DNA from: Labyrinthula sp. Ha
Lineage: Eukaryota > Sar > Bigyra > Labyrinthulida > Labyrinthulaceae
DNA: 64,000 bases
Reading direction: 5' to 3'
Assembly: GCA_015227615.1 (NCBI GenBank)
Contig: JAALGZ010000015.1
Span: 1,073,667 to 1,137,666 of the forward strand
The notes under the pieces were generated by a model. That model was not told the DNA's origin. It did not search any database and worked only from the letters and a program-made list of their open reading frames with translations. The position numbers and the translations under genes were made by a program. Shown in pieces: positions 1 through 64,000 of the stretch. Position 1 is the first letter of the stretch, and every line of letters starts with the position of its first letter.

Positions 1-575
1 CAGAAAATCCTCATCTGCATAATTCATGTTAATTCCTAACGATATCAGTTTCAAATATTTCATTTTACTGGTAATGGTGTTATAAAAATGATGACTAATT
101 GAACTGAAAGGGAAATGAAGTTCTTCAACGGTGTGCAATAAATTTATGATTTGTTTTCTTATTTTCTTCGAGACTTTTTCATCACTATGCGAATTAATTT
201 TCAGTATTTGTACAGTCTTTAGCTGGCGTAGTAAAATATAGATTAAGTCAATTTGATGATCTGAATATCTCTCTATAATCTCAAGTTCGACTAATTCGCC
301 CACTTTTTGTAGCAAAGATAACAAGAAAGAATTTATTTTCAGAACTTTTAAGTTCATCTCACAAATTATAAGGTGTTTAACATCAATTCTGTTCACAAAA
401 TCTAGAACCAGGTTTGTTTCTTTTTCGCTTGGTTTGAATTTGAAATGTGTTAGCTTATTGCACTTTACGTCTTCTCAATGTATATACTTAAGACGTCCGC
501 GGAAAGGAATACACAACTTGACAAGTAAAACTTCAAATAATTGATAATAGGAATATAAATCTTTGACTTCTTATA
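1..575 (-). pseudogene. LRR-like gene fragment (left arm of inverted duplication)
   Basis: This is the reverse complement, nearly base for base, of the LRR-like gene at 54,746-55,320, so it encodes the same leucine-rich, beta-strand/helix-like repeats. The gene continues beyond base 1, so its 3' part is not visible. It carries the same in-frame TGA as the right-hand copy (codon at about 477-479) and no convincing upstream ATG. The 5' end of the coding frame stops near the flank shared with the MULE. It is either a 5'-truncated pseudogene or a gene whose first exon and intron I cannot place. The paralogue at 57,230-58,201 supports the idea of a local family; function is unknown. Confidence 0.55.
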
Positions 576-1083
576 TGTAAAAACTCACTCACGAATAAAA
601 CCTTCTTCTTTTTTACAAAAACTTCTTCAAAAACTTATTCGTGTTAAAAATAACGGCTTGTTTTTTTCAAAAACTAACTATTCCAAAGAGGCTAAACATG
701 ATATATTTCAAAGTATTTCCAATACCGAGTCATACTATTTTAATTTGTTACTATTGTTTGTTATTTCCTACAAATCCTCCCCACATTATTTCACTTCAAT
801 CGTTAGTAACAATATTTCGCTCCAAATCCATATCAACCAATATCACGTAATGTAAATTCACAGCATAAAAACATCAGTGAAATAAACACCCTCATATAAC
901 ATCACGGGCGAAAATATCACCAAATACGAAAGTGAAAAGACAACAAAATAAACCTCCAAATCACACAAAGGTGGTCATATCTGTCAAAGAAACACCTGAG
1001 ATAATGCCATCAACAACTAGTTATCATAGTAAATACATCAGGTAACCTTCATATACCAAAATAAAATTTTTTAGAGTCAAATT

Positions 1084-1296
1084 TCATATCCCAAACCCAA
1101 AAACCTTCGTAAGCTGAAATAATATAACAGTGGAACACACAACAAGCTCCAAAATGTCTATTTCGTCTTCTTCGTCTATTTGTTTTATCCCTTGCTCGAG
1201 ACGAACCCAAAAACCATATCCCTCTATCTCCTGATACAGACGAACTAAGTTGCTTGATCTATGAAAAGTTAGGATATAATTTTTAGAAGTGTTCAT
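1084..1296 (-). CDS. Small 70-codon ORF shared by both arms, doubtful gene
   Basis: An ATG-started 70-residue frame with an acidic stretch (KQIDEEDEID) followed by a hydrophobic stretch (VVCSTVILFQLTK). The same frame is kept at 54,024-54,236 in the other arm with only two amino-acid differences that I can see (Trp/Cys and Val/Ile). It is oriented like the LRR-like gene and lies between that gene and the MULE. Conservation between two nearly identical duplicated arms is weak evidence for coding. It could be a lost first exon of the LRR-like gene or chance. Confidence 0.2.
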   Translation of the reverse strand: MNTSKNYILTFHRSSNLVRLYQEIEGYGFWVRLEQGIKQIDEEDEIDILELVVCSTVILFQLTKVFGFGI

Positions 1297-1504
1297 ATAA
1301 TTGAAATTGGGTTTGAATTTTTCTACTCATGAGCCAGTTTCTTCTTATGATATTATTGGTCAGATCGATTTCCCAAAATTATTTTTCATTATACTTCGTC
1401 TGAATAATCGATGCGCAGATTTGTGAGTTCCCATAGAAAAAATCTTAAGAGGGCAGACATAAATATTATGGGCGAATTTCAAAACAAAGTTACGAACAAA
1501 AACT

Positions 1505-3595
1505 ATGCAAAAAGACGAATCCAAAGGGATGAGCCTCCAACCAGAGGTTCTAGACCCTGAACAACAAAGTCAATCAGAAATACTAGGAAAATGGACTGCA
1601 GCAACGTATTCTACTTCAGAAGAAATGCTGGAAGTGGTCAGTAGACTTGCCAGTGGTCGCTTTAAGTGGAAAATTCGTGCTTCTCACTGCTTTGATGAGG
1701 TAATCAGCTATACAAAGTTGAATTGGAACATTAAAAAACTGAAAAGAAGCAAACTTAACTGTAGTTCAGAGAAGAATTGCTCGTTTGAAGTTAACATGAA
1801 GCTTAATTCTGATACTTCTGAGTACTTTTTTGTCGTAATTATTGAAAATGACGGCAATCAGGAGGTGAAAGCCTCTGGAAAGACTGAAAATATGCACAAG
1901 AGTCAACAACAGAAGAATTAAAAATGATTAAACACACAGGAGTTGCCGACAGTGGAAATGCAGTAGCAGACGATGCTCTTCATCACAATTTTCCAGACAC
2001 ATTATTTGACAAGCAGCTAGTATAAAGAATCATGAAAAAAGCCGAAGAAGGTGTTGACGCCATGCGAAGATGATAATATTAAGAAATTAATTACGTCTGG
2101 CAAAACATGCCTAGAACATGTAGGAACATTTGATCTGAATTGGGATTATCCCAAAGAAGGCAAAGCTATTCTAAATGAACTCAGCTTTCAAGAACACCTA
2201 CAACATGAATTAGAAGGTATGTACGGGGATAGTGTTCAAGTGGGTACAACCCATAGAATGAGCAGATATCGGTTGGTGGTAATGTTCCCTTGCGGGATCG
2301 ATTGATTCCTTAGAACCATAAATTTCGAGTGCTCAATGATGGAGAGTGAGTTCAGCAAAGATGTCGTTAGAGGCTTGAAACTTCTGGGTCTTCAGGATGC
2401 GGAAGTCATCATGACGGACAGTAGCAAAGCCTTGGAAACAGCTGTGGAGGAACTTGGAGCCTCTCATGTTCTTTGCAGGAAGCACTTCTTTGCGATATTG
2501 AACTCAGCTGCACCTAGCTTAAGACTGGTTAAAAAAATTACCAGCAACTTGGGAGATGTACTCACTAGAATCTTTTCAGGTGAGAAAAATCTTGACCAGC
2601 TTATTGAAAACATGTTGAGTGAGTTTCCTGATGAACCGCAGCATATTGCCTTAGAAAGAATTAAGAAAAATAAAAACAAAGTGTGTTGGGAGATAACAAA
2701 AAAAGTTCTAACATTCTCGCACAACGTTACTTAGAGGGTTGAATCATTTCATTCGGCCATCAAAGGGAATGGTTCTTCAAAGAGCTCACTTAAAACCTGA
2801 ACACTTGATGAGGCTGCCATCAACCATGAGAATAATGTGGATAAGTACACGGAAGCAACTTTGAAAAAGCTCAAGGATTTGATAAGGGGTGATAAAAAAT
2901 TTTCAAAGGAAGCTGATGAAATGTTCAGAAAAGAGTTGAAGTTGATGGGAGCGTGCCAAATTGTTGAAGATTTGAGTTCAAGAAAGTTCATTGTCAGTGA
3001 TTCAAACATGAGAATAAAGATGAGGCATGTTTTGGAGGTTGTTGAAAGGGAAGGGGTAAAACTTCAACTATGTACTTGTGAAACATGGACCAATCTTCAT
3101 TTTCCATGTCGTCACTATGCACGGTATAGTGATCGTAAAAGGATCCAATACATGTGCATAGATCATCTTCCAGAGAGGTGGAGGTATCAGGAGCATCCTC
3201 TGTTCAAGCAAGCATTAAGGGAAATGGGGCGAGAAGTCGATGGCCCACGTGGGTGTATTGAGTTCAAGGTGAGAGCTCCACCTGTGAACACAGCTTACAT
3301 CCCAATAAAGCCGGAAGCTAAATATTCCAAGCTCCTCACTGCATGCAAAGCGCTCTGTAAAGAGGCGAAAAGCAGCAACGAGAGCTGGAAGAAAAGCTAT
3401 GCAGCAGGCTTCAAGATGACCGCTGCACTAAGGGAGAACCCAGATGGAGACTTTGGGGATGTGGATGAGGTTTCTGAAGAAAGTGGGATTATGTTTGAGT
3501 CACCAAGGAAGAGGATCAAAGGAAGGAAGGGGAACGGAGAAAACGTCGCTTTGCCTCTGGGCTTCTCACAGACCACTTTTCTCACAGATGAGTAA
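1505..3595 (+). pseudogene. MULE transposase pseudogene (copy L)
   Basis: Four colinear reading-frame blocks: 1505-1921, 2051-2305, 2336-2734 and 2837-3595. The third block holds a MULE-transposase-like core with VIMTDSSKALETAVEELGAS and VLCRKHFF. The last block holds a SWIM zinc finger of the CxC(n)CxH type (CTCETWTNLHFPCRH) near 3070-3117, then a basic C-terminus. The frame is interrupted by a TAA at 1919-1921, a TAG at 2732-2734 and a TGA at 2798-2800. In copy R2 the last two are sense codons (CAG and TGG), so they are genuine nonsense mutations. R1 shares both stops, so L and R1 were duplicated after the gene died. The N-terminal block may be a FAR1/MuDR-like DNA-binding region; that assignment is weak. 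Confidence 0.85.
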
Positions 3596-3635
3596 AAAAA
3601 GTAATTCATTGTTTAACCCTTTCCTTTTTTTGAAA

Positions 3636-3990
3636 TGTTTCTCTAAGAATAAATCCTTGAACACTTTACTTTTCTTGAACATAAATCTTGATCTTTGAAT
3701 ACAAATCCTTGAACCCAAACTCCCTCCCTTTTTTGAATATTAATCTTGCTCCAAGAACCTTGAATACAAATCTGAACCTTGACTTTTTTCTTTGAATATA
3801 AGCTGAACACTACTACCCAACCATGCAGAAGAGAATTGGGCTCTCAACTGCATTTTCATTACTATTCAATCTATCTGATCCTTGAAACCGTTCCCTTTTT
3901 TTATTAATATATAGACATTGAACCTTGAACCCTCATCCTTTTAGTTTTTTTGAACTACTTTTCAAGAATTAAATTCTTGAATCTTAAAAT
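3636..3990 (+). repeat. Degenerate CTTGAAYA-type short repeats in MULE 3' region
   Basis: Downstream of the transposase stop the sequence repeats variants of CTTGAATACAAATC and CTTGAACC about every 17-25 bases (for example near 3656, 3676, 3695, 3710 and 3756). The reverse complement is kept in copy R2. It looks like a subterminal repeat array, a common place for transposase binding in Mutator-like elements. A binding role here is inference only. Confidence 0.4.
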
Positions 3991-4528
3991 TTTCATTTTT
4001 GTTTTTTTTTAAAACACATAATTCTTCAAGGGTTTTCTGGAATAGGGAAAAGAGTTTATCCAGAATAAAGCTTATGCCCAACGTCCCAACCAGTTGAATA
4101 AAAACTTTCTTTCTTCAATCCTATTCCATGCAGCTCATCTACATCCAAGAAACAAATCTTTCTGATGCTTCTTTGAACACATAAAATAACAGTCCTCTGA
4201 GTAGAAGCAGCTAAATACAAAAAAATGTACCTTTAGTCTTTCGTTCGTGTTATCTTTCATATAATCTTGTTCATAATATCTGCAGCTTGATTTTGACTCT
4301 GTGTTTGTTCGCTCTTTAAACATGTTGTGATCATTTCCTTGAAAACCACGACATACAGATTCTTTGAGTTTCTATTTGCCTTTTCATATTTTCTTGAACT
4401 GTTTCTCCTTGATAACTGGGTCTTACGGTGGTTTTTGTGATCTAACTGTCATGATTTGAATTAACCATTTTTAATTTTGTTAGCCTTTTCTTCAAGATTT
4501 TTTTTTGGCAATTAAACATTCGACCAAT

Positions 4529-7500
4529 GAGTTTTATGAGTATCTGACTCCTAAATCAAGCAACCTAGCTCATGTTTCATTTCCTCGTTACGATTTTAAT
4601 AAAACTAAAAAGAGACAATATTTAACTTCCAATGTGTTTATATGATGACTTAAACACTAGAATTTGTGTACAAAGCAAACTAGAATTACAAGTGAATACT
4701 GATTAACTACCCTGAGGGGAAAAAGAGTTCTCTAGCAAATGTGTTAAAATAAAACCCGACCATACCGCCGAAGGAATAAAAGCAAGAAAAAAGAGCCATT
4801 TTATCGAAGGGAGAGAAACTCAACTGGGTAGTCTATTATTCTAATGATAAGGAAACTATACAGAAAGTTAGCCATGGTACATCTATTTAACTCTGTCTAG
4901 TTTATATTCTGAAATATATATTTATTTAAAACATTATTCTTGCTAGCTCTTATGCTTTTATTTAATGTTTGTGTTCCGGATAGTTTAATTCTCCATTCAA
5001 TATTTTCTATTAGTGGTTTCAAAAGTGAAAATTTTCTTATTCAAGCTATATTAAGTTAAAACAAAATCCAATCCTATAAATAACAAACAAACGTATATTT
5101 TTTATCTGAAACTCCTCCTATATACTTGAGCTTATCAATCGTATACCAACAAAAATAAACACACTGGGCTTCTTGCCAGAAAAATATTTAATTTAATTGA
5201 TTCTAAATATATTGAACCCTAAATATAGAAAAATGAGATTTTTTGTTTTTTTAAAGTGATTGCGAAAAAATCTATTATTAGATTTCGGTCGATCTAAAAA
5301 AAGTTATATACACGAGTATCTCTTATATAAAGAACTAACAATCATTCTTATTAGGTTCTCAAGAATCAAAATCCATTTATACATGGAGTCTGCTATATTG
5401 ATTTTTCTCTATGACGTGATTAAACAATAAGTTCTATTTCTGCAAGATACTATTAAAATATTAAATAATGCAATTGAACTACCAAATATGCTACAATACA
5501 TGATGCCCTATTGTCCCACGTACTAAGTAAGCACCGTGAAACTTATTGCCCTATTTTTTCAGAATTTAATCACTTTAGAAATATTTTTATCATTAAATAA
5601 CCCGAAAAGTAAAAATTTCTCTTGTTTTGATCAACCTCTTATTGGTTTAGTGTCCTACAATATTCGAATTATTGATGATAAACTGGCACAAATTTTAATA
5701 CACTGATGCAATACCCATTGCCTAAAGACATATAGAGTAACTTTACAACATTCTTGTATAATTCAGTTCATTTAATTTTAAGTTATTACCAAAATAAATA
5801 TCAATACGTTAACTTTTCATAAAAAATATACATATCATTATTTTTTCATTTCTGTATATTTATCCATTTCTGTTTCTTCACCAATGTGTTTGAGACCTAA
5901 ATCATCATATATTTTTTGCAGACTTCTATTTGCTGCGTAGCACCCTGTCTCTCAGAGACTTTATTCCATAAAAACTACAATCTTCTTAATATAAATTATT
6001 CATATCTTCTATATTCTTCTTTCAAAACGACATGTTATCTATATGAGTTCATGACGTGCACTGTTTGAAGTATAACTCGCACTAGCCGCTTGATACTATG
6101 GTTAGTGCTGCGATCCAAATCTTCATTTATCAATTGATGTAGATAATTAAACCAATACATATTCAATATCTTGTTACAGCTTATTGGCTTGCTGTTCAGT
6201 GTAACTCAAACAGCTGGTACAAGAAAATTATCTGGAAAGAATAATGTTTGAAATTGGACTGTTAAACACATCTAGTATTTCTCTTACTTCAACAAGCGGC
6301 ATTTTTTATGTTTTATGTAACTATTGAGGTAATACTTAAAATCTCCTTTTCTATAAAGTAACTTAGAAACTATTTTTTAAAGATGTTATCGAAGTAGGGG
6401 TACCAGTTGATGTTATCGTGATATTTGAAACAAGCGTTGAGGATTTTGAGTATAATTTGAGTTTGTTGGCTTTTTCACAGACACTCTGAGTGAGGTTTGA
6501 TAATATCATGAGCATCGTTTGATATTTTGTTCATCTGGTGCGGTTTCTTTGATATGATGATACTTTGAGTTTTTTATATTTTCCAGCTTTATCATTCTCA
6601 AGTATTCCTTGGTTGTTCCTGGACAGCTTTCACAGTTTATGGGAATCGAACTCATTCCTAATACTTCATATTTCACATCGCCCCTAGCTGCAATAGGGAA
6701 ATTATGTATAATATATACATCCTAGTACCAGTTTGACGGGAAGACAAATATTATGAAACTTTGAAAAGAAAACACAAGAAATATATAAACATAATAGCAA
6801 ACCTAAACAAAAACAAGTAAAGAAACTACTATGAGCAGCAACCGAAACTCTCCGAATACAAAAGATTCAAACCCTGCAAATTTTCAAAAAATGGATACTA
6901 ATCGCTGCAGAACCCTCACATTAAGCCAAGGAAATATTTGGATGTACATAAACAAATTCCGCCACTATCAACTTAGGAGAGAATAGAGAAAAAGGCTCAG
7001 CAACTGGTATAGAAGTATGGAGATGAACATAGAGTTTTCTACATTGAATGAGAAGAGGTAAATTATTAGAAACATAATTGCGTGTGGATATCAACCTTGT
7101 AATTAAACTACCTCTGTTGAACTCTCTTAAGTTTTACATATATATTAAAGTTGAATGCGAAGTAAGTTACTGTTAAGTATGTGAACTAAAATTAGTATGC
7201 GTTCTTTTAACGGAAAATTTCTCCACTCCTACATGTAGTTTGCGTAAATTGTGCTTTATATTAATTAAGTCTAGCTAGTTAGAGGCGATTATTATGTGTG
7301 AATACATATATTGAGGTTGTGGTAGAACTAATAATTTTATTGGATATCATGGTGAAAAATCAAATAAATATACTCTGTTTAAACAATGAATTTGAATATG
7401 TATATCTATAACGTTTAATTTTTATCAAGCTGGTTGTAAGAATCAACAAAAATGTACAAACTAAGGCTTAAGACTTGAACTAGGTTCAAGAGTGATTTTT

Positions 7501-14838: not shown

Positions 14839-17800
14839 TTACCAGTTGAAGTTGGTAAAGTCATCATACTTTTCTTTCTCAGCTTTATTTCTTGACTCAT
14901 AAAGAGTGTGGTCTGAATAAGCATGTTCCTTTGCAGGGTTCACTCTTACAGTACATCCATTACCAGTCTTGTAGTGAATAAAATCTGGTTGGAAGTCAAT
15001 CTTCATTCTCTTCTCTCTCATAACTTCCTCAGTAAACACCTTACATACAGTCAAACAGATACGTTGTCCTGCTTCTACACCATATTCCTGTATAGCTTCT
15101 TTCAACATGTGACAGTCAGGAATGTATAATCCACCGCCCATTGCATCTTCAAATCTATAACTGTATCCCACCAAAAGTCTAAACTGCGTTGCAAAAACCC
15201 AACTGAACACCCAACTATTCATATTTGGCGCATATGCTCCAACAGCAGCAAGAATTGCTTGAGCCCAAGGTCCTAGAAAAGGCATAAATCCATCTTCAAA
15301 GGTTCCAAGCCAAAATCGAATTCCAGTTCTAAAATCTTGAAGGTTCCACTGCATTGAGTACTGTACTTCAGGATAAGCAGGAATATTAGTAAAGATATTA
15401 TTGAAGCCATGCATAGGAGCTTGAATAATCTTGAACACACCATCACCAGGACCAATATCTTTAGGATATTGAGTAGGATCATAGTCCGAAGGAAGTGGAG
15501 CAGGTGGCATACCATTTGGCTTGCCATTGAAGAAGTCTACATATCCTCTCACAGTCGGAGAAACGGAAAGAAACTTCTTCATATCATAAGTCAAAGGATT
15601 CCCTAAATCTTGTGTTTCAAATGCGACTTGTAACTCGTATCTTGCTTTCCTTAAATAATATCCTTCAGCCAGTGGATAACTGATAATATAGAACAAGGTC
15701 CAAATAATTCCAATAATTATATTCAAAACTGTTCTGATCAAGTTTCTAATTCTCGAGTTCTCAACATTGAGAAGAAACTGTTGAGGTCTTTGATATTCTT
15801 CTGGTCTTTTGTCAGCTTCTGGTTTCAATAAACTGTCTAGTTCTCCAGTGAGACCATCAAACAACATATTGTTGTAATTCACAATATCCAAAACAGATTC
15901 GAAGTTATTACTTGCGTGCACGAAGAAAGTATTATTCTTTCCTTGAAGGTCCATTAAGTTCCACAAACTACCTTTATCCATATCTGTACCTTCAAAGTGT
16001 GTAAAGTATGTCCAAGCTTGACTGTGCAAGTGATCTAGTTGATCATAAGTTCCCATATCAGTTTTCTGTTCATTAAAGAATAATTTTTGTTTATCATCAA
16101 GATACCTTTTAAGTTCAACTGGACCATGTTTGAAACTTGGTGCAACATATTGGTAACACATTTTCTCACGAGGAGTATCTTTTAGAGGATCAGTTTTGTT
16201 TCCATTCTTTGTTGAAAGCATAGGTTGAATAGCCTTGTATGAATCTCTAACTCCAAATACATCTCCAGTTCCAGGAACAACAGTACAACTAGGATTAGGT
16301 GACTGTAGAATAGCATCAGTGAAGATTCGCAAATGATCTTTCTCAAAGTGTCCATTTTGTGGAGGTTTGAATAAGTTCGTTCTAAAAGTTGAACCAACTA
16401 TTTGGTCACTCAATAAAATAGAACTTTCCTCACTTGTTAACTGGAGTGGAAAGGTTTGAACTGTACTGTCCTGATACGCATCACTCATTGGAGCAGCCAT
16501 TACCAAGAAATCAAAGTCTTCAGTAAATGTATTTCCTTCATGTGTATAGTTTACAGTAACAGAAGCATCGCCCCCAGTTACTGCTCTTGTAATATTTGCG
16601 ATATCTGCATTTAGTTTCATTCTTCTTCTTAAACCATGAAGATCAACAATTCTATCCCAAACAGCTAACCAACCAGCAACAACCATCGCTTTTCTAGGGT
16701 TGTCAAAGTCATCCAAATCTCTTCCTGTCTCTTTCATCTTTGCTTGAAACTTTTCCATTTCTGGTCTGAAATTTCCATTTTCATCTTTCATGAATAGGAA
16801 GAATTCATACCACTCAAAGTAACCATCCAACAAATCTGGAGTCATCCAGCACATTCCCCAATATGTAGGTGTCTCATCTATCAGTCCGTAGCCTTGCGCA
16901 GTGCAGGCATAGGTAAAGAGCGGCAAAAGGATGTCCAGTTTCTCTTCACGTAGAAAGTCTCCGAACTTCTTCTTTAACTTATCATTCATCTTAGGTTGCG
17001 GTCTAGCAGGAATGGTATAGTAGTAGGACCCCATCATTTCCTGATGTAGTTTACAGTATTTCAACTTAGCTGCAAGAACAGCTGCGTTCACTGCCATTCG
17101 CTTTGTTCTTGGGGTAAAGCCAAATATTTCATCCAAATTGGTCTTATCCTTTCCACTTTGATAGATCCACTCATCCATTGTCAACCCAAGAGGAGGCGGA
17201 ATATTTCCTCCTTCAAAAGCATAAGTATCAGGACCAACTTCTGCTGTTAGATCAATGGACATAGTTGGAGAAACCTTCTGCAGGTCCTTTAGCATTTGTC
17301 TTAAGGCAAAATATCCTGGGCTCATGTAGCATGTTCCTAGCTCATGAAAAACTGGATCTCCACCTTCATACATTTCTTCAACAGTTTGGTCACCCCAGAT
17401 CAACTCTCCATCAGCTGTGTATTGAGGGTTAGCAAGCTGGCACTCGGACTTATCCAAGATAGACAAAGTTTTCCCACCATATCTGTCAGTTTTTTCCAAA
17501 ATTGTGATGTTTTTAGCGGGTAAACCCTTTTGAATTAACAAGTGAGCCATGTGTAAACCACTAGGTCCAGCTCCTACAATCACAACTTTGGAATCCTTCT
17601 TAGGCAACTTGTTACTAAATTTCCTGTGGAATAGTCTCCAAAGAATAAATGTATGTCTCTGAATATCAGTTTCAAACTGTCTTTGTGTCATCTTACCAAC
17701 TGGCCATCCCAATACGAAGTTAGTTCTCATTCTTCTTGTCCATCTTAAGTGACACTTGTTAGGGTCTTGTTGATAAGTAGTAAATACCATAAGCCAGTTA

Positions 17801-18333
17801 TGATCTTTTGCTGGGTGCATTGGAATAGAATGCTCGTTGGAGAAATGTACTCCGAACTTATATACCTTTTGCCCATATTGATCGACTTCAGAATCATCAC
17901 ATACCTTAATCTCTTCTACAATGGAGAACACCTTTCCCATGTCAAAATATGAATATCTAAAAGCTGACCCTGGTCCATTCTCAGACAAATGGTTTGGCAC
18001 GCATCTCTCCCATTGAGGAACTGATCTAAAGTTCTGCATTCCCCCCTCTCTAGCTTCCTTTTCTACATCATACATAAACACTGACAAGAAGTCCAAGTAG
18101 TTTGTCATTACCGAGAAACATTTCTCAGCACTGAACGGGTAAACCATCTCTCCCTGAATATTTAAAAACTCCTTTCCAAAACTCATGTGCTTGTAGATAA
18201 AAGGCAGTTCACTTTCATCAATAGGCTGACTCCCTTTAATTGGAAATGGGCCTCCTTTCTTAGGATATACACCCACTGACATATCCTTCTCCAACCCCTC
18301 TGATACACCTACAGGTTTCACAGTAACAGTCAT
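14839..18333 (-). CDS. SRPBCC-like + FAD-dependent oxidoreductase fusion, 1164 aa
   Basis: A single-exon gene starting at the first ATG of a long open frame and ending in TAA. Residues about 50-235 look like a START/polyketide-cyclase (SRPBCC) lipid-binding fold. Residues 249-290 form a dinucleotide-binding Rossmann start, KVVIVGAGPSGLHMAHLL, with an acidic strand end and YGGKT, as in flavin amine-oxidase/phytoene-desaturase-like enzymes. The central part (to about residue 800) continues that oxidoreductase type. A hydrophobic segment, LIRTVLNIIIGIIWTLFYII, around residue 865 could anchor it in a membrane. The last about 250 residues are a separate region with several Cys (CHMLKEAIQEYG, ICLTVCKVFTEEVM, GNGCTV). 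The substrate is unknown; a lipid or isoprenoid-like substrate is inference from the paired domains. Flanked by deserts on both sides; an AACGG motif lies about 80 bp upstream (18,417). Confidence 0.85.
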   Translation of the reverse strand: MTVTVKPVGVSEGLEKDMSVGVYPKKGGPFPIKGSQPIDESELPFIYKHMSFGKEFLNIQGEMVYPFSAEKCFSVMTNYLDFLSVFMYDVEKEAREGGMQNFRSVPQWERCVPNHLSENGPGSAFRYSYFDMGKVFSIVEEIKVCDDSEVDQYGQKVYKFGVHFSNEHSIPMHPAKDHNWLMVFTTYQQDPNKCHLRWTRRMRTNFVLGWPVGKMTQRQFETDIQRHTFILWRLFHRKFSNKLPKKDSKVVIVGAGPSGLHMAHLLIQKGLPAKNITILEKTDRYGGKTLSILDKSECQLANPQYTADGELIWGDQTVEEMYEGGDPVFHELGTCYMSPGYFALRQMLKDLQKVSPTMSIDLTAEVGPDTYAFEGGNIPPPLGLTMDEWIYQSGKDKTNLDEIFGFTPRTKRMAVNAAVLAAKLKYCKLHQEMMGSYYYTIPARPQPKMNDKLKKKFGDFLREEKLDILLPLFTYACTAQGYGLIDETPTYWGMCWMTPDLLDGYFEWYEFFLFMKDENGNFRPEMEKFQAKMKETGRDLDDFDNPRKAMVVAGWLAVWDRIVDLHGLRRRMKLNADIANITRAVTGGDASVTVNYTHEGNTFTEDFDFLVMAAPMSDAYQDSTVQTFPLQLTSEESSILLSDQIVGSTFRTNLFKPPQNGHFEKDHLRIFTDAILQSPNPSCTVVPGTGDVFGVRDSYKAIQPMLSTKNGNKTDPLKDTPREKMCYQYVAPSFKHGPVELKRYLDDKQKLFFNEQKTDMGTYDQLDHLHSQAWTYFTHFEGTDMDKGSLWNLMDLQGKNNTFFVHASNNFESVLDIVNYNNMLFDGLTGELDSLLKPEADKRPEEYQRPQQFLLNVENSRIRNLIRTVLNIIIGIIWTLFYIISYPLAEGYYLRKARYELQVAFETQDLGNPLTYDMKKFLSVSPTVRGYVDFFNGKPNGMPPAPLPSDYDPTQYPKDIGPGDGVFKIIQAPMHGFNNIFTNIPAYPEVQYSMQWNLQDFRTGIRFWLGTFEDGFMPFLGPWAQAILAAVGAYAPNMNSWVFSWVFATQFRLLVGYSYRFEDAMGGGLYIPDCHMLKEAIQEYGVEAGQRICLTVCKVFTEEVMREKRMKIDFQPDFIHYKTGNGCTVRVNPAKEHAYSDHTLYESRNKAEKEKYDDFTNFNW

Positions 18334-50912: not shown

Positions 50913-51184
50913 CTTAATACTTATTCTAACATTTTACTAACCTTTCCACAACTAAATTTTTTGCTTTGTACAAAAAGTCGTTTTTAAGAACACCCATCTT
51001 TGAAGCGCAGCAATTGATGAGACACAAATGAAACTGCAACTACATACTAAATGGAAGCAAGGCAGTATATTTGATGAACATTGGTGTTTTGTGCAATTAT
51101 GCGTTTCTTTATACTACTTTATATGATTTTACAAGATCACCGAATAAAGTTTCTTGGCTTCGGAGTCTGATACTCCTATTTCTC

Positions 51185-53965
51185 ATTGGCCAAATTTTTA
51201 ATTTACCAAAATATATTCTGAAAAAAAAACAACAAATTTTAAATAAAAAATTTAAAATCACAACAGTTGGATCACAAGAACACCGGAAGAGCCAGTTATG
51301 AACCAGAACCCGTTTAAGGAAGTTTAGCAATGCCAAGGGAAGGTTAAAAAATGTATTTGTCATGCTTTTCAAGGAAAGGATCACAAGATGTTTAAAGAGC
51401 GAGCAAGCAGTCAGGATCAAGGTGAAGATATTATGAACAAGATTATGTGCAAGAAAAGACTCAGGGAAAACAAAGGTTAAACTATTTTTATTTTCTTTTT
51501 AGACTGTGCAACTCAGAGAGTTATTATTTACTGTTTTCAACGTTGTTTCAGATATTTTTCTTTGTTGGATGTAGATCAGCTACATGGGATAGGGTACAAG
51601 AAAATCAGTTTTTATTCAAGTGGGTGGGGAGTTGGGCTCAAGCTATGTATATATTCAAAAAAAAGTTCAAGTATTAAGAAAAGCAAAAGGAAAAGTTCAA
51701 GAAAAAGAAATCTTCAAGAATTAAAACCTCATTCATCAGTGAGGTAGGTGTTTTGTGAGAAGTCCAGAAGAGAAGCAACATTTTCTCCCTTTCCCTTCCT
51801 CCTTCTGGTCCTCTTCCTCGCAAACTCAATAATGACCCACTTTCCTCTGACGCCGCACCAATGCTCGTGAAATTTCCATTCTGAGTTTTGTTCAACGCTG
51901 CGGTCATCTTCAAGACTGCCGTGTACACTTTTTCCAGCCCTCGTTGCTGCTTTTTGCCTCTTCACAGAGCGCTTTCCATGCGGTGGGAAGCTTGGAATAC
52001 TTGACTTCCGGCTTTCTTGGGATGCAAGGTGCATCCACAAGTGGAACTTATACCTTGAACTCAATACACCCACGTGGGCCATCGACTTCTCGCTCCATTT
52101 CCCTTAATGCTTGCTTGAACAGAGGATGCTCCTGATACCTCCACCTCTCTGGAAGAAAATCTATGCACATGTATTGGATCCTTTTACGATCACAATACCG
52201 TGCATAGTGGCGACATGGAAAATGAAGATTGGTCCATGTTTCACAAGTACATAGTTGAAGTTTTACCCCTTCCCTTTCAACAACCTCGAACACATGCCTC
52301 ATCTTTATTCTCATGTTTGAATCACTGACAATGAACTTTCTTGAACTCAAATCTTCAACAATTTGGCACGCTCCCATCAACTTCAACTCTTTTCTGAACA
52401 TTTCATCAGCTTCCTTTAAAAAATTTTTATCACCCCTTATCAAATCCTTGAGCTTTTTCAAAGTTGCTTCCATGTACTATCCACATTATTCTCATGGTTG
52501 ATGGCAGCCTCATCAAGTCTTCAGGTTTTAAGGGAGCTCTTTGAAGAACCATTCCCTTTGATGGCCGAATGAAATGATTCAACCCTCTAAGTAACGTTGC
52601 GCGAGAATGTTAGAACTTTTTTTGTTATCTCCCAACACACTTTGTTTTTATTTTTCTTAATTCTTTCTAAGGCAATATGCTGCGGTTCATCAGGAAACTC
52701 ACTCAACATGTTTTCAATAAGCTGGTCAAGATCTTTCTCACCGGAAAAGATTCTAGTGAGTACATCACCCAAGTTGCTGGTAATTTTTTTAACCAGTCTT
52801 AGGCTAGGTGCAGCTGAGTTCAATATCGCAAAGAAGTGCTTCCTGCAAAGAACATGAGAGGCTCCAAGTTCCTCCACAGCTGTTTCCAAGGCTTTGCTAC
52901 CGTCCGTCATGATGACTTCCGCATCCTGAAGACCCAGAAGTTTCAAGCCTCTAACGACATCTTTGCTGAGCTCACTCTCCATCATTGAGCACTCGAAATT
53001 TATGGTTTTAAGGAATCAATCGATCCCGCAAGGGAACATTACCACCAACCGATATCTGCTCATTCTATGGGTTGTACCCACTTGAATACTATCCCCATTT
53101 ACTCTTTTAATTTATTTTGTAGGTGTTCTTGAAAGCTGAGCTCATTTAGAATAGCTTTGCCTTCTTTGGGATAATCCCAATTCAGATCAGATGTTCCTCC
53201 ATGTTCTAAGCATCTTTTCCCACACGTAATTAACTTTTTAATATTATTATCTTGGCTAGCGTCAACACCTTCTTTTGTTTTTTTCATAATTCATTTTACT
53301 AGTGTTTTGTCAAACAGTGTGCTTGGAAAATAATGATGTAGTGCGACATCTACCACTGCAATTCCAGTGTCGCAAACTCCTAAGTGTTTAATCGTTCTTA
53401 ATTCTTCTTTTGCAAGCTTTTGAGCATTTTTTTCAATCTCTCGTAGCGCATTTACCACATGGCTACAATAATTCTTGTTAATTACGACGAAGATGTACTT
53501 AGAAGTCTCAAGATTAAGCCTAATGTTGACTTCAAACGAGCAATGTTTGTCCGAACTATACTGAATTTTGCATCTTTTGTATACTTTACAGTTCCAACCC
53601 CGCTTTACATAGCCGATTGCCTCGTCAAAGCAGTGAGAAACACGAAATATCCACTTAAAGCGACCACTGGCAAGTCTACTGACCACTTCCAGCATTTCTT
53701 CTGAAGTAGAATACGTTGCTGCAGTCCATTTTCCTAGTATTTCTGATTGACTTTGTTGTTCAGGGTCTAGAACCTCTGGTTGGAGGCTCATCCCTTTGGA
53801 TTCGTCTTTTTGCATAGTTTTTGTTCGTAATTTTGTTTTGAAATTCGCCCATAATATTTATGTCTGCCCTCTTAAGATTTTTTCTATGGGAACTCACAAA
53901 TCTGCGCATCGATTATTCAGACGAAGTATAATGAAAAATAATTTTGGGAAATCGATCTGACCAAT
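51185..53965 (-). mobile_element. MULE copy R1, inverted relative to copy L
   Basis: The 3' end (left side here) is at ATTGGCCAAATTTTTAATTT (51,185), the same terminal sequence as in copies L and R2. The other end is at GACCAAT, 53,959-53,965. It is shorter than L mainly because the region after the transposase is reduced (about 540 bp against 930 bp). Flanks of 9 bp (CTATTTCTC and AATATCATA) do not match. The outer flank beyond 53,965 is duplicated at 1-1354 in the opposite orientation. Confidence 0.7.
51729..53815 (-). pseudogene. MULE transposase pseudogene (copy R1)
   Basis: Blocks 53,815-53,291, 53,287-53,099, 52,985-52,587, 52,473-52,048 and 52,082-51,729 are colinear with copy L. The core (VIMTDGSKALETAVEELGAS, VLCRKHFF) and the SWIM finger (CTCETWTNLHFPCRH) are intact in sequence. 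The frame has the TAG and TGA nonsense codons shared with L, and a frameshift around 52,060 after which the C-terminus (KGENVASLLDFSQNTYLTDE) is divergent from L and R2. The N-terminal block is longer than in L (174 aa), as L has an early TAA. Not functional. Confidence 0.85.
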
Positions 53966-54023
53966 AATATCATAAGAAGAAACTGGCTCATGAGTAGAAA
54001 AATTCAAACCCAATTTCAATTAT

Positions 54024-54236
54024 ATGAACACTTCTAAAAATTATATCCTAACTTTTCATAGATCAAGCAACTTAGTTCGTCTGTATCAGGAGATAGAGGG
54101 ATATGGTTTTTGCGTTCGTCTCGAGCAAGGGATAAAACAAATTGACGAAGAAGACGAAATAGACATTTTGGAGCTTGTTGTGTGCTCCACTGTTATATTA
54201 TTTCAGCTTACGAAGATTTTTGGGTTTGGGATATGA
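54024..54236 (+). CDS. Small 70-codon ORF (right-arm copy), doubtful gene
   Basis: Counterpart of 1084-1296. It lies just outside the proposed 5' end of the MULE and upstream of the LRR-like pseudogene on the same strand. The frame is unbroken in both arms. It could be a first exon for the LRR-like gene, but I see no splice arrangement that connects them. Confidence 0.2.
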   Translation: MNTSKNYILTFHRSSNLVRLYQEIEGYGFCVRLEQGIKQIDEEDEIDILELVVCSTVILFQLTKIFGFGI

Positions 54237-54745
54237 AATTTGACTCTAAAAAAATTTTATTTTGGTATATGAAGGTTACCTGATGTATTTACTATGATAA
54301 CTAGTTGTTGATGGCATTATCTGAGGTGTTTCTTGACAGATATGACCACCTTTGTATGATTTGGAGGTTTATTTTGTTGTCTTTTCACTTTCGTATTTGG
54401 TGATATTTTCGCCCGTGATGTTGTATGAGGGTGTTTATTTCACTGATGTTTTTATGCTGTGAATTTACATTACGTGATATTGGTTGATATGGATTTGGAG
54501 CGAAATATTGTTACTAACGATTGAAGTGAAATAATGTGGGGAGGATTTGTAGGAAATAACAAACAATAGTAATAAATTAAAATAGTATCATTCGGTATTG
54601 GAAATACTTTGAAATATATAATATTTAGCCTCTTTGGAATAGTTAGTTTTTGAAAAAAACAAGCCGTTATTTTTAACACGAATAAGTTTTTGAAGAAGTT
54701 TTTGTAAAAAAGAAGAAGGTTTTATTCGTGAGTGAGTTTTTACAT

Positions 54746-55700
54746 ATAAGAAGTCAAAGATTTATATTCCTATTATCAATTATTTGAAGTTTTACTTGTC
54801 AAGTTGTGTATTCCTTTCCGCGGACGTCTTAAGTATATACATTGAGAAGACGTAAAGTGCAATAAGCTAACACATTTCAAATTCAAACCAAGCGAAAAAG
54901 AAACAAACCTGGTTCTAGATTTTGTGAACAGAATTGATGTTAAACACCTTATAATTTGTGAGATGAACTTAAAAGTTCTGAAAATAAATTCTTTCTTGTT
55001 ATCTTTGCTACAAAAAGTGGGCGAATTAGTCGAACTTGAGATTATAGAGAGATATTCAGATCATCAAATTGACTTAATCTATATTTTACTACGCCAGCTA
55101 AAGACTGTACAAATACTGAAAATTAATTCGCATAGTGATGAAAAAGTCTCGAAGAAAATAAGAAAACAAATCATAAATTTATTGCACAGCGTTGAAGAAC
55201 TTCATTTCCCTTTCAGTTCAATTAGTCATCATTTTTATAACACCATTACCAGTAAAATGAAATATTTGAAACTGACATCTTTAGGAATTAATATGAATTA
55301 TGCAGATGAGGATTTTCTGGTTGAAAATTATATTAAACTTTGTAAAATATGTTCAAAGGGAAAAATATTAAAAGTTTCTATTAGTGTGACTGATCTGAAC
55401 CAACTCCCTCTTTTCATAGCAGCTCAACTACTCTTAAAATGCCCAAAAAAAAATTGGATTATTAAATTAGGTGTGATGTATGGTAATACGAGAAGAGTAA
55501 AGGAATTTGTTTCTGCCGGTGTCATGATTCAGGATGAGTGCAAGAGAGGTTCAGAGATTCGCTTTCCCTACAGGAAAGTTTTGCTAAATTTCTACAGGAA
55601 CATTTTCAGTAGATGTAGAACTTTTTTCTCTGAAGATTGGAGTGAATCAAACAATTTTTATAGGAAAGGATATCTAAATTCAACCACTATTACCAAATAA
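54746..55700 (+). pseudogene. LRR-like protein gene, 5'-truncated (right arm)
   Basis: An open frame from 54,746 to a TAA at 55,698-55,700, broken once by TGA at 54,843-54,845. No ATG lies in a sensible upstream position; the 258-codon part downstream of the TGA begins at a GTG. Leucine-rich strand/helix units recur (LKVLKINSFLLSLLQKV, LKTVQILKINS, MKYLKLTSLGIN, ILKVSISVTDLNQL). The middle aligns with the paralogue at 57,230-58,201: LLHSVEELHFPFSSISHHFY against LFHQVKELQYPLCTLTSHFF. A 21- or 24-nt GT-AG intron could remove the TGA, but this is below the 27-32 nt seen in secure introns. Function unknown; F-box/LRR-type interaction proteins are one possibility. Confidence 0.6.
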
Positions 55701-57229: not shown

Positions 57230-58201
57230 CTAAGCTAGCTTATAAATACAATGTTCACCAAAGCTTCCAGCCATCGTATCCCAGTTTTCTGGAGTAATCA
57301 ACGACACTCTATCAACAAAACTAAATTCGTGATTCTCTAGATAGTCCAAGTTCTTGAAAATAATTTTGGAATCCTTTATTATATTATTCTCCATCTTAAT
57401 TGCTGAATCAAAGAGATATTTTACTCCAACTCTAAAATAGTGAAAAGTCCAACTACTGAATTCCCATTTTATTCCATTATTTTTTCTTAATAATTGAGAT
57501 GTTATAAATATTTCAATATTACCATAGACTTCAATTCTAACTTCTTTAAGTAAACCAATTCCACACAGTTGTTGAACGAGCAAAAAGGTTTGAGAAACAA
57601 CTCCTTCATCAACATCAAGACAACTAATAGATAATATTCGCAAATTTGAAATATCGTCCTTGGTAGCTAAGTTTTTAAAAAAATGACTGGTCAGTGTACA
57701 TAAAGGATACTGAAGCTCCTTAACTTGGTGAAACAAACGAAGGAGTTTCTTCTCTTGAACAGTTCTTATTTCAGGACCAGTCGTACTTGGGCACTTCAAA
57801 ACTCTTAAATTCTTTTGACAAATTAGTGGATGAAACAGTGGTCTTGCATCACTAAACGAATAATTGGCTAAGAATATAAATTCTTCTATTCCTTTGAGTT
57901 CTTCAGAGAATACTTCCAAGAGTTGTGATAGTTTGTTATAATCAATAAAACAATGGTCGAGAGTTAGTGATTTGAACCTTAGTTTTTTCACTCTTGGTTT
58001 AATTATTGAAATATCATGGCTAGTAATAGAATTTGTAATACTTGAAAGGCAAAGTTTAGTTGCCGTAAACTTTTCTATTCCGCGAATTTGGCTTTTTAGA
58101 GGAGGTGTGCGAGTACAACCCCCACCTAGAAGTTGTATAATCTGAAGAGAATCATATGTTTGGTACATATTAATAACATAAGGAAGAATAGATGCATACA
58201 T
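57230..58201 (-). CDS. LRR-like protein, 323 aa, paralogue of the 54.7-kb gene
   Basis: An intact frame from ATG (MYASILPYVINMYQ) to TAG. It has leucine/isoleucine-rich repeats with the same order as the truncated copy: VKKLRFKSLTLDHCFID, LKGIEEFIFLANYS, NLRVLKCPST, LFHQVKELQYPLCTLTSHFF, LRILSISCLDVDEGVV, LKEVRIEVYGNIEIFITSQL. No F-box, kinase or transmembrane segment was recognised. A short frame upstream on the same strand (58,212-58,394, ending NRKTNSIS) may be a further exon, but no clean splice pair joins them. Being near a repeat-rich region with a broken paralogue suggests a recently expanding family. Confidence 0.75.
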   Translation of the reverse strand: MYASILPYVINMYQTYDSLQIIQLLGGGCTRTPPLKSQIRGIEKFTATKLCLSSITNSITSHDISIIKPRVKKLRFKSLTLDHCFIDYNKLSQLLEVFSEELKGIEEFIFLANYSFSDARPLFHPLICQKNLRVLKCPSTTGPEIRTVQEKKLLRLFHQVKELQYPLCTLTSHFFKNLATKDDISNLRILSISCLDVDEGVVSQTFLLVQQLCGIGLLKEVRIEVYGNIEIFITSQLLRKNNGIKWEFSSWTFHYFRVGVKYLFDSAIKMENNIIKDSKIIFKNLDYLENHEFSFVDRVSLITPENWDTMAGSFGEHCIYKLA

Positions 58202-61490: not shown

Positions 61491-61815
61491 ATAGGTTTTG
61501 GCTTGATTGTTCCATATGTTCTTATTGTGTTTGAAATTGAGAAAAGCACCCCAACAGCTGAGAATTTCTCTTCATTTTCTCTAACGGGAACATCTATTGC
61601 GAATTTAATAAAATTTTCGATACAGTCAGAATTTATTCTTTGTTGAATATTCTTCAAGAACCACTCAACGGATAAATTTCAGTTTAATTGTAATTAAAAA
61701 AAATTGTTTTATGAAAATGTTCCAGCACTTGTCCGTTTAACGTTGGGATAGGTTCCTGCAGAAAAAAAACGAATAAGTTCTTTTTTTACTCCAGAATAGG
61801 ATTCTCCTCAATACC
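61491..61815. other. Intergenic between pseudogene and MULE copy R2
   Basis: No gene; it includes the presumed promoter of the secreted-protein pseudogene and two AACGG/CGTTTAACG motifs (61,668 and 61,735). Confidence 0.4.
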
Positions 61816-64000
61816 ATTGGCCAAAATTTTAATCGCCAAAAAAATTATTAAAAAATAAATCAACAAAATTCAAAATGGATAATCCAAATCATGATAGTTA
61901 CATCACAAAAGACACCGAAAGACCCAGTTATCAAGAAAAAACATTTCAAGATGATATTAAAAGACAAAGGGAAGGTTTAAGGATGGTTATGCTATCGCTT
62001 TCAATAAAAGAATCATATGATTCTTAAAGAGCGAACAAACACAGAGTCAAAATCAAGCTGCAGATATTATGAACAAGATTATATGAAAGATAACACGAAC
62101 GAAAGACTAAAGGTACATTTTTTTGTATTTAGCTGCTTCTACTCAGAGGACTGTTATTTTATGTGTTCAAAGAAGCATCAGAAAGATTTGTTTCTTGGAT
62201 GTAGATGAGCTGCATGGAATAGGATTGAAGAAAGAAAGTTTTTATTCAACTGGTTGGGACGTTGGGCATAAGCTTTATTCTGGATAAACTCTTTTCCCTA
62301 TTCCAGAAAACCCTTGAAGAATTATGTGTTTAAAAAAAAAAAACAAAAATGAAAATTTTAAGATTCAAGAATTTAATTCTTAAAAAGTAGTTCAAAAAAA
62401 CTAAAAGGATCAGGGTTCAAGGTTCAATGTCTATATATTAATAAAAAAAGGGAACGGTTTCAAGGATCAGATAGATTGAATAGTAATGAAAATGCAGTTG
62501 AGAGCCCAATTCTCTTCTGCATGGTTGGGTAGTAGTGTTCAGCTTATATTCAAAGAAAAAAGTCAAGGTTCGGATTTGTATTCAAGGTTCTTGGAGCAAG
62601 ATTAATATTCAAAAAAGGGAGGGAGTTTGGGTTCAAGGATTTGTATTCAAAGATCAAGATTTATGTTCAAGAAAAGTAAAGTGTTCAAGGATTTATTCTT
62701 AGAGAAACATTTCAAAAAAAGGAAAGGGTTAAACAATGAATTACTTTTTTTACTCATCTGTGAGAAAAGTGGTCTGTGAGAAGCCCAGAGGCAAAGCGAC
62801 GTTTTCTCCGTTCCCCTTCCTTCCTTTGATCCTCTTCCTTTGTGACTCAAACATAATCCCACTTTCTTCAGAAACCTCATCCACATCCCCAAAGTCTCCA
62901 TCTGGGTTCTCCCTTAGTGCAGCGGTCATCTTGAAGCCTGCTGCATAGCTTTTCTTCCAGCTCTCGTTGCTGCTTTTCGCCTCTTTACAGAGCGCTTTGC
63001 ATGCAGTGAGGAGCTTGGAATATTTAGCTTCCGGCTTTATTGGGATGTAAGCTGTGTTCACAGGTGGAGCTCTCACCTTGAACTCAATACACCCACGTGG
63101 GCCATCGACTTCTCGCCCCATTTCCCTTAATGCTTGCTTGAACAGAGGATGCTCCTGATACCTCCACCTCTCTGGAAGATGATCTATGCACATGTATTGG
63201 ATCCTTTTACGATCACTATACCGTGCATAGTGACGACATAGAAAATAAAGATTGGTCCATGTTTCACAAGTACATAGTTGAAGTTTTACCCCTTCCCTTT
63301 CAACAACCTCGAACACATGATTCATCCTTATTCTCATGTTTGAATCACTGACAATGGACTTTCTTGAACTCAACTCTTCAACAATCCAGCACGCTCCAAT
63401 CAACTTCAACTCTTTTGTGAACATTTCATCAGCTTCCTTTGAAAAATCTTTATCCTCCCTAATCAAAAACCTTAATTTTTTTCAAAGTTGTCTCCATGTA
63501 CTTATCCACATTATTCTCGTGGTAAGTCACAACCTCATCAAGTGTCCATGTTTTAAGAGAACTTTTTAAAGAACCATGCCCTTTAATTGCTGAGTGAAAT
63601 GATTCAACACTCTGAGTAGCGCTGTGAGAGAACGTTGGAAGTTTTCTCGTCATCTCCCAACACACTTTGTTTTTTTTCATAATTTTTTCTAGGGCAAGAT
63701 GCTGCGGTTCTTCAGGATATTCAACTAACATGTTTTCAATAAGCTGATCAAGATTTTTCTCTTCTGAAAAGATTCCAGTGAGAACATCCCCCAAGCTGCT
63801 TGTAAATTTTATTTTTTTTCATCCCTTTTAGGCCAGATGTTGATGAGTTCAAGTTCGCAAGAAAGTGTTTCCTGCAAAGAACGTGAGGCGCCCCCACTTT
63901 CTCAACAGCTGCTTCCAGTGCTTTACTCCCATCGGTCATGATGACTTTCGCATCCTGAAGACCCAGAAGTTTCAGTCCTTTCACAACATCTTTACTGGAC
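61816..64000 (-). mobile_element. MULE copy R2, cut by window end
   Basis: The 3' end is at ATTGGCCAAAATTTTAATCG (61,816), matching the ends of L and R1. From 62,024 to about 63,239 it is nearly identical to copy L (4319 down to 3112); outside that tract it is clearly diverged. The flank before 61,816 does not match the flank of L, so the near-identity is confined to the inside of the element. The 5' half runs off the window. Confidence 0.72.
62750..64000 (-). pseudogene. MULE transposase pseudogene (copy R2, partial)
   Basis: Frames 63,984-63,748, 63,794-63,459 and 63,466-62,750 cover the MULE core (VIMTDGSKALEAAVEKVGAP, VLCRKHFLANL), the linker VESFHSAIKGHGSLK and LKTWTLDEVVTYHENNVDKY, the SWIM finger (CTCETWTNLYFLCRH) and the basic C-terminus ending FSQTTFLTDE. 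Two codons that are stops in L and R1 are CAG and TGG here, so this copy is closer to the active ancestor, but frame changes near 63,460 and 63,770 still break it. Confidence 0.82.

What the first reader, a model, noticed from the sequence alone, without database searches (positions are those of the whole stretch)
1355..4528. MULE copy L is a patchwork of at least three sources with sharp switch points
Against R1, copy L is nearly identical at 1-1670, clearly divergent at 1671-2234, nearly identical again at 2235-3105, and divergent from 3112 on. From 3112 to 4319 it is nearly identical to R2 (63,233 down to 62,024), then divergent from it again. The R1-to-R2 switch lies between 3105 (L and R1 C, R2 T) and 3112 (L and R2 T, R1 C). 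A tract bounded on both sides, with unmatched outer flanks, points to gene conversion between dispersed dead elements rather than transposition or simple crossover. The direction of transfer is unknown, and the source of 1671-2234 is not in the window.
Basis: seen in the sequence. Interest (0 to 1): 0.75.

Follow-up and report, generated by a model that had tools for sequence, protein, structure and literature searches.

The report
Mosaic dead transposon copies swapping segments
Three broken copies of a jumping gene in one stretch of a eukaryotic genome share blocks of sequence in a mosaic pattern that points to repeated exchange between copies, a process already known from other transposons.

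Summary
The mosaic is real. L (window 1-4571) is 99.0% identical to R1 over 1-1670, 79% over 1671-2234, 98.1% over 2235-3270 and 74% over 3271-3595. Against R2 it is 84% identical before 3035, 99.5% over 3035-4319 and 74% over 4320-4540. No shuffle reached the observed signals.

Three corrections matter. (1) The R1-to-R2 switch is not sharp: the L-R1 and L-R2 tracts overlap by 236 bp (3035-3270), inside a longer island (2905-3270) where R1 and R2 are also alike, with 1.8 synonymous differences in 69 sites. R1 and R2 therefore took part too, and L need not be the recipient. (2) L and R1 share their 5' flank, including part of an ORF, to the window edge, and share three stop codons. That part was not made by simple transposition. 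(3) The MULE label rests on sub-threshold Pfam hits; no target-site duplication was found.

Best reading: recurrent non-allelic homologous exchange (gene conversion plus one flank-including duplication) among dead MULE-like elements, direction unresolved. L cannot be an assembly chimera of R1 and R2 alone; reads are needed to exclude other artefacts. The phenomenon is known, so interest is modest.

The parts
1..1241 (.). 5' flank of L, shared with the R1 flank (55319 down to about 54079); holds the truncated flank ORF (1-396, minus strand)
   Evidence: 16 differences in 1240 bp; tblastn 98.5% over 132 aa
1242..1264 (+). candidate terminal inverted repeat, left arm
   Evidence: 19/23 complementary to 4549-4571; 5 of 500 block shuffles reached the score for L's 3' end. 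Against: R1's 3' end shows no match (299 of 500 shuffles reach its score), and R2's best match lies elsewhere, at 1318-1386 (6 of 500)
1242..1670 (+). L element 5' part, R1-like
   Evidence: 1 difference in 429 bp
1671..2234 (+). divergent block between L and R1; source not in the window; a near-identical patch lies inside at 2131-2203
   Evidence: 119/562 differences; dS 0.51-0.59 and dN/dS 0.36-0.59 up to 2062, dS 0.20 over 2066-2216
2235..3270 (+). transposase-like coding part, R1-like; carries stop codons at 2303, 2732 and 2798 shared with R1
   Evidence: 20/1035 differences; stops
3035..3270 (+). three-way agreement zone holding the SWIM-like C-x-C...C-x-H motif; overlap of the L-R1 and L-R2 tracts
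   Evidence: change-points; R1-R2 7/236 differences, 1.0 of 46.8 synonymous sites
3035..4319 (+). L-R2 shared tract
   Evidence: 7/1285 differences, bounded by 16.3% and 26.4% divergence
4320..4571 (+). L 3' end, unlike R1 and R2; right candidate TIR arm at 4549-4571
   Evidence: 4320-4540: 60/219 to R1, 58/220 to R2
51149..55319 (-). R1 copy with its 5' flank; lacks about 390 bp of the L/R2 3' non-coding part; unlike L and R2 from 52051 down
52052..52417 (-). R1 side of the island of agreement with R2 (L positions 2905-3270)
   Evidence: 17/366 differences; 1.8 synonymous differences in 69.2 sites
61800..64000 (-). R2 copy, cut by the window end; 62024-63310 is the tract shared with L
   Evidence: no in-frame stop before the terminal TAA, but insertions of 7 and 1 nt and a 3-nt deletion relative to L

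Best explanation
L, R1 and R2 are decayed copies of one family of MULE-like DNA transposons that have undergone repeated non-allelic homologous exchange. Shown: several shared or foreign blocks with localised edges and different divergences. Inferred order: (1) an older event copied a dead element together with at least 1.24 kb of its 5' flank between the L and R1 loci (1.0-1.9% divergence since), by segmental duplication, long-tract conversion or break-induced replication ending in the element near 3270. (2) The R2 lineage and the L/R1 lineage shared the piece around 2905-3270 (R1-R2 4.6% now). (3) Block 1671-2234 was replaced in L or R1 by a diverged, unseen family member. (4) The youngest event made L and R2 alike over about 3035/3106-4319 (0.5%), most simply gene conversion by double-strand-break repair using the other copy as template. 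The handover from R1-like to R2-like lies in the stretch where R1 and R2 are most alike, as homologous strand exchange would favour. The direction of each transfer, and the place of (2) and (3) in the order, are not determined.
For: Segmentation and permutation. L and R1 share stops at 2303, 2732 and 2798; R2 lacks those at 2732 and 2798 and does not reach 2303. The shared 5' flank and flank ORF rule out simple transposition for that part. Synonymous sites follow the blocks: R1-R2 over 2905-3270 have 1.8 synonymous differences in 69.2 sites, against 47 in 114.5 on the left (p=1e-9) and 36 in 68.7 on the right (p=2e-11). L-R2 divergence is lower than L-R1 divergence (5/1208 against 32/2545, p=0.013; with change-point tracts 7/1285 against 37/2704, p=0.022), so that sharing is younger if rates are similar. 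The four longest R1-R2 identical runs (72, 62, 42 and 35 bp) all lie in 3026-3270.
Against: Only three copies could be compared: no whole genome is held, and one ORF searched in IMG/VR contigs and GTDB genomes gave no relative. Conversion, double crossover and template switching cannot be told apart. No 8-11 bp target-site duplication was found. The edges at 1671, 2234 and 4319 do not lie in long stretches shared by the visible copies; the patch identical in all three at the 4319 edge is about 11 bp. L-R1 divergence is itself uneven: 1/429 over 1242-1670 against 16/1240 over 1-1241 (p=0.09), so age estimates are rough. The R1-R2 island was not split off at the strongest segmentation penalty.
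Confidence: 0.8

Rival explanations
1. L is the source rather than the patchwork. R1 received L-type sequence (flank to about 3270) and R2 received L-type sequence (about 3035-4319). The zone 3035-3270 agrees in all three because both recipients took it.
For: The pairwise tracts overlap at 3035-3270, and there the agreement needs no separate R1-R2 exchange. L's two candidate TIR arms match each other (19/23), while R1's 3' end does not match the shared 5' arm. R1-R2 synonymous divergence is higher in the right block than in the left (36/69 against 48/136, p=0.024); a similar contrast in non-coding sequence is not significant (63/252 against 72/218, p=0.066).
Against: R1-R2 likeness at synonymous sites reaches left to 2905, beyond the L-R2 tract (2905-3034: 0.8 of 22.3 synonymous sites, p=0.0005 against 2350-2904), which this model does not predict. 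The seven R1- or R2-private sites of the island sort perfectly around 3105/3112 (chance 1 in 21), and a switch model fits better by 1.1-3.6 log units averaged over breakpoints, with hand-set rates and one fitted parameter. L-R2 differences are denser in 3026-3111 than in 3112-4319 (4/86 against 5/1208, p=0.002). No target-site duplication was found around L.
Confidence: 0.25
2. L became mosaic elsewhere (by exchange or template switching) and arrived here as a copy of an unseen mosaic element.
For: The 1671-2234 block and the 4320-4571 end have no source in the window, so unseen relatives existed. Only three copies could be compared.
Against: The shared L-R1 flank still needs a flank-including duplication. 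No such copy could be searched for.
Confidence: 0.2
3. Assembly artefact: reads from several copies were merged into L.
For: Near-identical inverted copies on one contig invite mis-assembly, and no reads could be inspected.
Against: A chimera of R1 and R2 reads would be about 100% identical to each in its block. L differs from R1 by 17/1669 and 20/1035, and has a 562-bp block and a 3' end found in neither copy. In the L-R1 tracts the differences are mainly substitutions, with few gaps. A chimera of unseen copies stays possible.
Confidence: 0.07
4. No exchange: uneven conservation of transposase domains creates apparent blocks.
For: The SWIM-like motif lies in the best-conserved zone.
Against: Synonymous and 3' non-coding sites follow the same blocks, and partners swap (L-R1 close, then L-R2 close).
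Confidence: 0.01

Closest known systems
Gene conversion between Alu SINEs (Doronina et al. 2021, PMC8230782; abstract and outline seen)
   Same: Non-allelic conversion between dispersed copies; partial tracts giving hybrid elements (69 partial cases, per the abstract)
   Different: Short retroelements with orthologous loci that give direction; here a DNA transposon with no outgroup
Recombination among Pokey DNA transposons in Daphnia (PMC3575242; passages seen)
   Same: DNA-transposon copies that are mosaics, breakpoints mapped by maximum chi-square and GARD, some parents unknown
   Different: The Pokey copies studied sit in 28S rRNA genes, which may evolve in concert; the copies here lie at other, dispersed places
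Exchange between dispersed Tc1 copies in C. elegans (Fischer, Wienholds and Plasterk 2003; seen only as a reference entry in PMC1978519)
   Same: By its title, sequence exchange between dispersed copies of a DNA transposon
   Different: Another transposon family (recalled); content not read
Ectopic recombination between Galileo transposons in Drosophila (PMC2775673; search listings only)
   Same: DNA-transposon copies recombining with each other
   Different: Galileo generated chromosomal inversions; no inversion is shown here

Membership tests
Mutator-like element (MULE) | MULE transposase domain (PF10551) | tested here: inconclusive
   E=0.0025, 18.6 bits against a cut-off of 27.6, with a query joined from R1 and L pieces. 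The L ORF 2336-2734 alone gave Transposase_mut at E=0.023 and IFT57 at E=0.0088, both below cut-off
Mutator-like element (MULE) | C-terminal SWIM zinc finger | tested here: inconclusive
   PF04434 at E=0.038 for L ORF 2837-3595 and 0.089, both below cut-off; the R2 ORF 62750-63466 gave no match at E<=0.1. That this finger is typical of MULEs is recalled
Mutator-like element (MULE) | Terminal inverted repeats | tested here: inconclusive
   23-nt candidate in L, 19/23, 5 of 500 shuffles as good; R1's 3' end gives none (299 of 500), R2's best match lies elsewhere (6 of 500)
Mutator-like element (MULE) | 8-11 bp target-site duplication (length recalled) | tested here: not met
   No shared 8-, 9-, 10- or 11-mer with at most 1 mismatch around the candidate ends of L or R1. 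If the ends stem from different insertions none is expected. I therefore call it MULE-like and do not file it as a member
Non-allelic gene conversion tract | Internal tract of near identity bounded on both sides by higher divergence | tested here: met
   L-R2 3035-4319
Non-allelic gene conversion tract | Non-reciprocal transfer with identified donor and recipient | not testable with these tools
   No outgroup locus, no genome held

The most novel reading that the evidence does not exclude
A small network of dead MULE-like copies in one 64-kb region has exchanged sequence repeatedly, four or more events including an R1-R2 one, through a near-identity island (2905-3270, over the SWIM-like motif) that serves as a handover point between copies 16-26% diverged elsewhere. 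Earlier conversions would thus create the identity that later ones use.
Probability: 0.35. Interest if true: 0.4.

Novelty: new member of a known kind. Interest (0 to 1): 0.27.

Why it matters
Copies like these cannot be dated or classified from whole-length trees, because different blocks of one copy have different ancestors. The blocks give relative ages and candidate repair templates between inverted copies about 48 kb apart. A genome-wide version could test whether conversion islands seed further conversion. As it stands it is one more case of a known process.

Tried and rejected
Own-genome search for further copies: no genome held. Relatives of one ORF (R2, 62750-63466) in IMG/VR and GTDB contigs: none (16 pattern matches in GTDB, none confirmed). 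Other copies in the window by blastn of 1-6000 and by tblastn of three transposase ORFs at E<=0.01: only R1 and R2. Target-site duplication: none. tRNAs: none with the bacterial setting. Tandem repeats: six short rows, one inside R1 (51685-51720), none explaining the mosaic. A promoter scan of 1-200 gave one match, as expected by chance. One literature search returned no paper. Host identity: Pfam and PDB matches show a eukaryote but not which one. Rejected: conservation alone and a chimera of R1 and R2 reads, for the reasons given under rivals.

Mended readings: part of the 1671-2234 block was read in the wrong frame past 1886; one search replaces those values, and the stops at 1919-2033 are disregarded. 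I first drew the R1-R2 island as 3026-3270 by eye from the site list; the segmentation puts it at 2905-3270, and repeats the tests with those edges. That result weakened the L-as-source rival (my odds for it went from 0.35 to 0.25) and raised the network reading (0.30 to 0.35).

Full report
Setting. The window is 64,000 bp, 33.9% GC, from an unidentified eukaryote: of nine ORFs scanned with Pfam, four had matches at E<=0.001, among them a proteasome subunit, an SNF2-family helicase and an ABC protein; the best PDB matches of the proteasome ORF include beta type-7 chains. No whole genome is held. blastn of window 1-6000 finds two partners in the window: R1 (55319 down to 51149, minus strand) and R2 (63997 down to 61800, minus strand, cut by the window end). 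L is cut by the window start.

The observation. In a MAFFT alignment of the three copies, binomial change-point segmentation of pairwise differences finds L-R1 blocks 1-1670 (17/1669 differences), 1671-2234 (119/562), 2235-3270 (20/1035) and 3271-3595 (85/323), and L-R2 blocks 2350-3034 (111/682), 3035-4319 (7/1285) and 4320-4540 (58/220), the same at three penalties. The R1-R2 segmentation (2350-2904, 101/551; 2905-3270, 17/366; 3271-3595, 86/323) held at two penalties and collapsed to one block at the strongest. Of 284 sites where R1 and R2 differ and L matches one of them, 277 fit a single switch at 3105|3112; the seven exceptions are 2351, 2578, 2588, 2721, 2802, 2904 and 3504. The maximum descent of 171 was not reached in 20,000 shuffles (maximum 91), and the 1671-2234 block has a log-likelihood ratio of 142 against 12.7 in 100 shuffles.

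The switch is an overlap. The L-R1 tract runs to 3270 and the L-R2 tract starts at 3035. Between them all three copies agree (R1-R2: 7/236). R1-R2 likeness at synonymous sites extends left to 2905: over 2905-3270 there are 1.8 synonymous differences in 69.2 sites, against 47 in 114.5 over 2350-2904 (p=1e-9) and 36 in 68.7 over 3271-3595 (p=2e-11); the part outside the L-R2 tract, 2905-3034, has 0.8 in 22.3 (p=0.0005 against the left) but 9.2 non-synonymous differences in 106.7 sites. A low-divergence island in R1-R2 has a log-likelihood ratio of 31.9 against a maximum of 12.4 in 300 shuffles. Conservation of the SWIM-like motif alone does not account for it. So the R2 and L/R1 lineages seem to have shared this piece in an exchange of their own, and the younger L-R2 exchange ends inside it. 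The order of private sites also favours a switch inside the island (1 in 21 by chance; 1.1-3.6 log units averaged over breakpoints, with hand-set rates). The rival in which L gave overlapping pieces to both R1 and R2 explains 3035-3270 with fewer events but not 2905-3034.

Flank and death marks. L-R1 identity does not stop at the element. It continues through 1-1241 (16/1240 differences) and includes 132 codons of an ORF (R1 side 54924-55700) at 98.5% protein identity. In the frame of the transposase-like protein L and R1 share stops at 2303, 2732 and 2798; R2 has neither of the latter two and does not reach 2303. Hence the L-R1 part descends from one already broken copy and was copied with its flank, which simple transposition does not do. 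R2 has no in-frame stop before the terminal TAA in the aligned part but carries insertions of 7 and 1 nt and a 3-nt deletion.

The divergent block 1671-2234. L and R1 differ here with dS 0.51 and dN/dS 0.59 (1671-1885), dS 0.59 and dN/dS 0.36 (1888-2062), and dS 0.20 and dN/dS 0.40 (2066-2216), read in the corrected frame. Such divergence with some protein constraint suggests that the two versions separated largely as functional elements, so one was probably brought in whole, not built by mutation in place. Against uniformity, 2131-2203 has one difference in 73 bp, so the block may be two tracts.

Relative age. L-R1 tracts have 32/2545 differences (1-1670 and 2235-3111) and the L-R2 tract 5/1208 (3112-4319), p=0.013; with change-point tracts 37/2704 against 7/1285, p=0.022. 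Over 3112-4319, where R1 can polarise, there are 0 L-private and 1 R2-private changes; over 2350-3111 there are 6 L-private and 6 R1-private, and 2 three-way sites. The L-R2 sharing is younger if rates are similar. But L-R1 divergence is uneven: 1/429 over 1242-1670.

What the element is. A 23-nt imperfect inverted repeat at 1242-1264/4549-4571 (19/23; 5 of 500 shuffles as good) could be the terminal repeat, but R1's 3' end does not show it (299 of 500) and R2's best match lies elsewhere (6 of 500). No 8-11 bp target duplication was found with at most one mismatch. I use 'MULE-like'.

Artefact. A chimera of R1 and R2 reads would match them fully. L does not, and has a block and an end found in neither. 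An artefact from unseen copies is possible and only reads can exclude it.

Literature. Exchange between transposon copies is established: Alu conversion with partial hybrids (PMC8230782, abstract and outline), a review (PMC6598467, abstract and outline), mosaic Pokey DNA transposons (PMC3575242, passages), and Tc1 (Fischer et al. 2003, reference entry only). Three searches with Mutator-like/MULE and gene-conversion terms among others (15 of 114 listed; 12 of 17; 7 of 7) listed no paper whose title or abstract start describes conversion tracts between MULE copies. Only listings were seen, not every term was required, and the library is partial, so I claim no absence from print.

Verdict. A real, well-resolved mosaic of a known kind.

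Noticed in passing
54924-55700 (+) and 57230-58201 (-): Two diverged members of an unnamed ORF family, without Pfam matches at E<=0.1; 23% identity over 180 aa, pairwise E=2e-13. The first is duplicated in L's flank (1-396).
   Followed up: partly
1-3270 and 52052-55319: Inverted, largely near-identical segments about 48 kb apart enclose a stretch of other genes; they could mediate inversion of that stretch.
   Followed up: no
14839-18333 (-): A single uninterrupted 1164-aa ORF whose Pfam matches at E<=0.001 (NAD_binding_8, Amino_oxidase, and Thi4 below cut-off) all lie near residues 238-295; the rest is unassigned.
   Followed up: no
3615-3954 and 62407-62737: Diverged short repeats of the type ATCCTTGAAC...TTTTTTGAA in the 3' non-coding part of L and R2; R1 lacks most of this stretch.
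   Followed up: no
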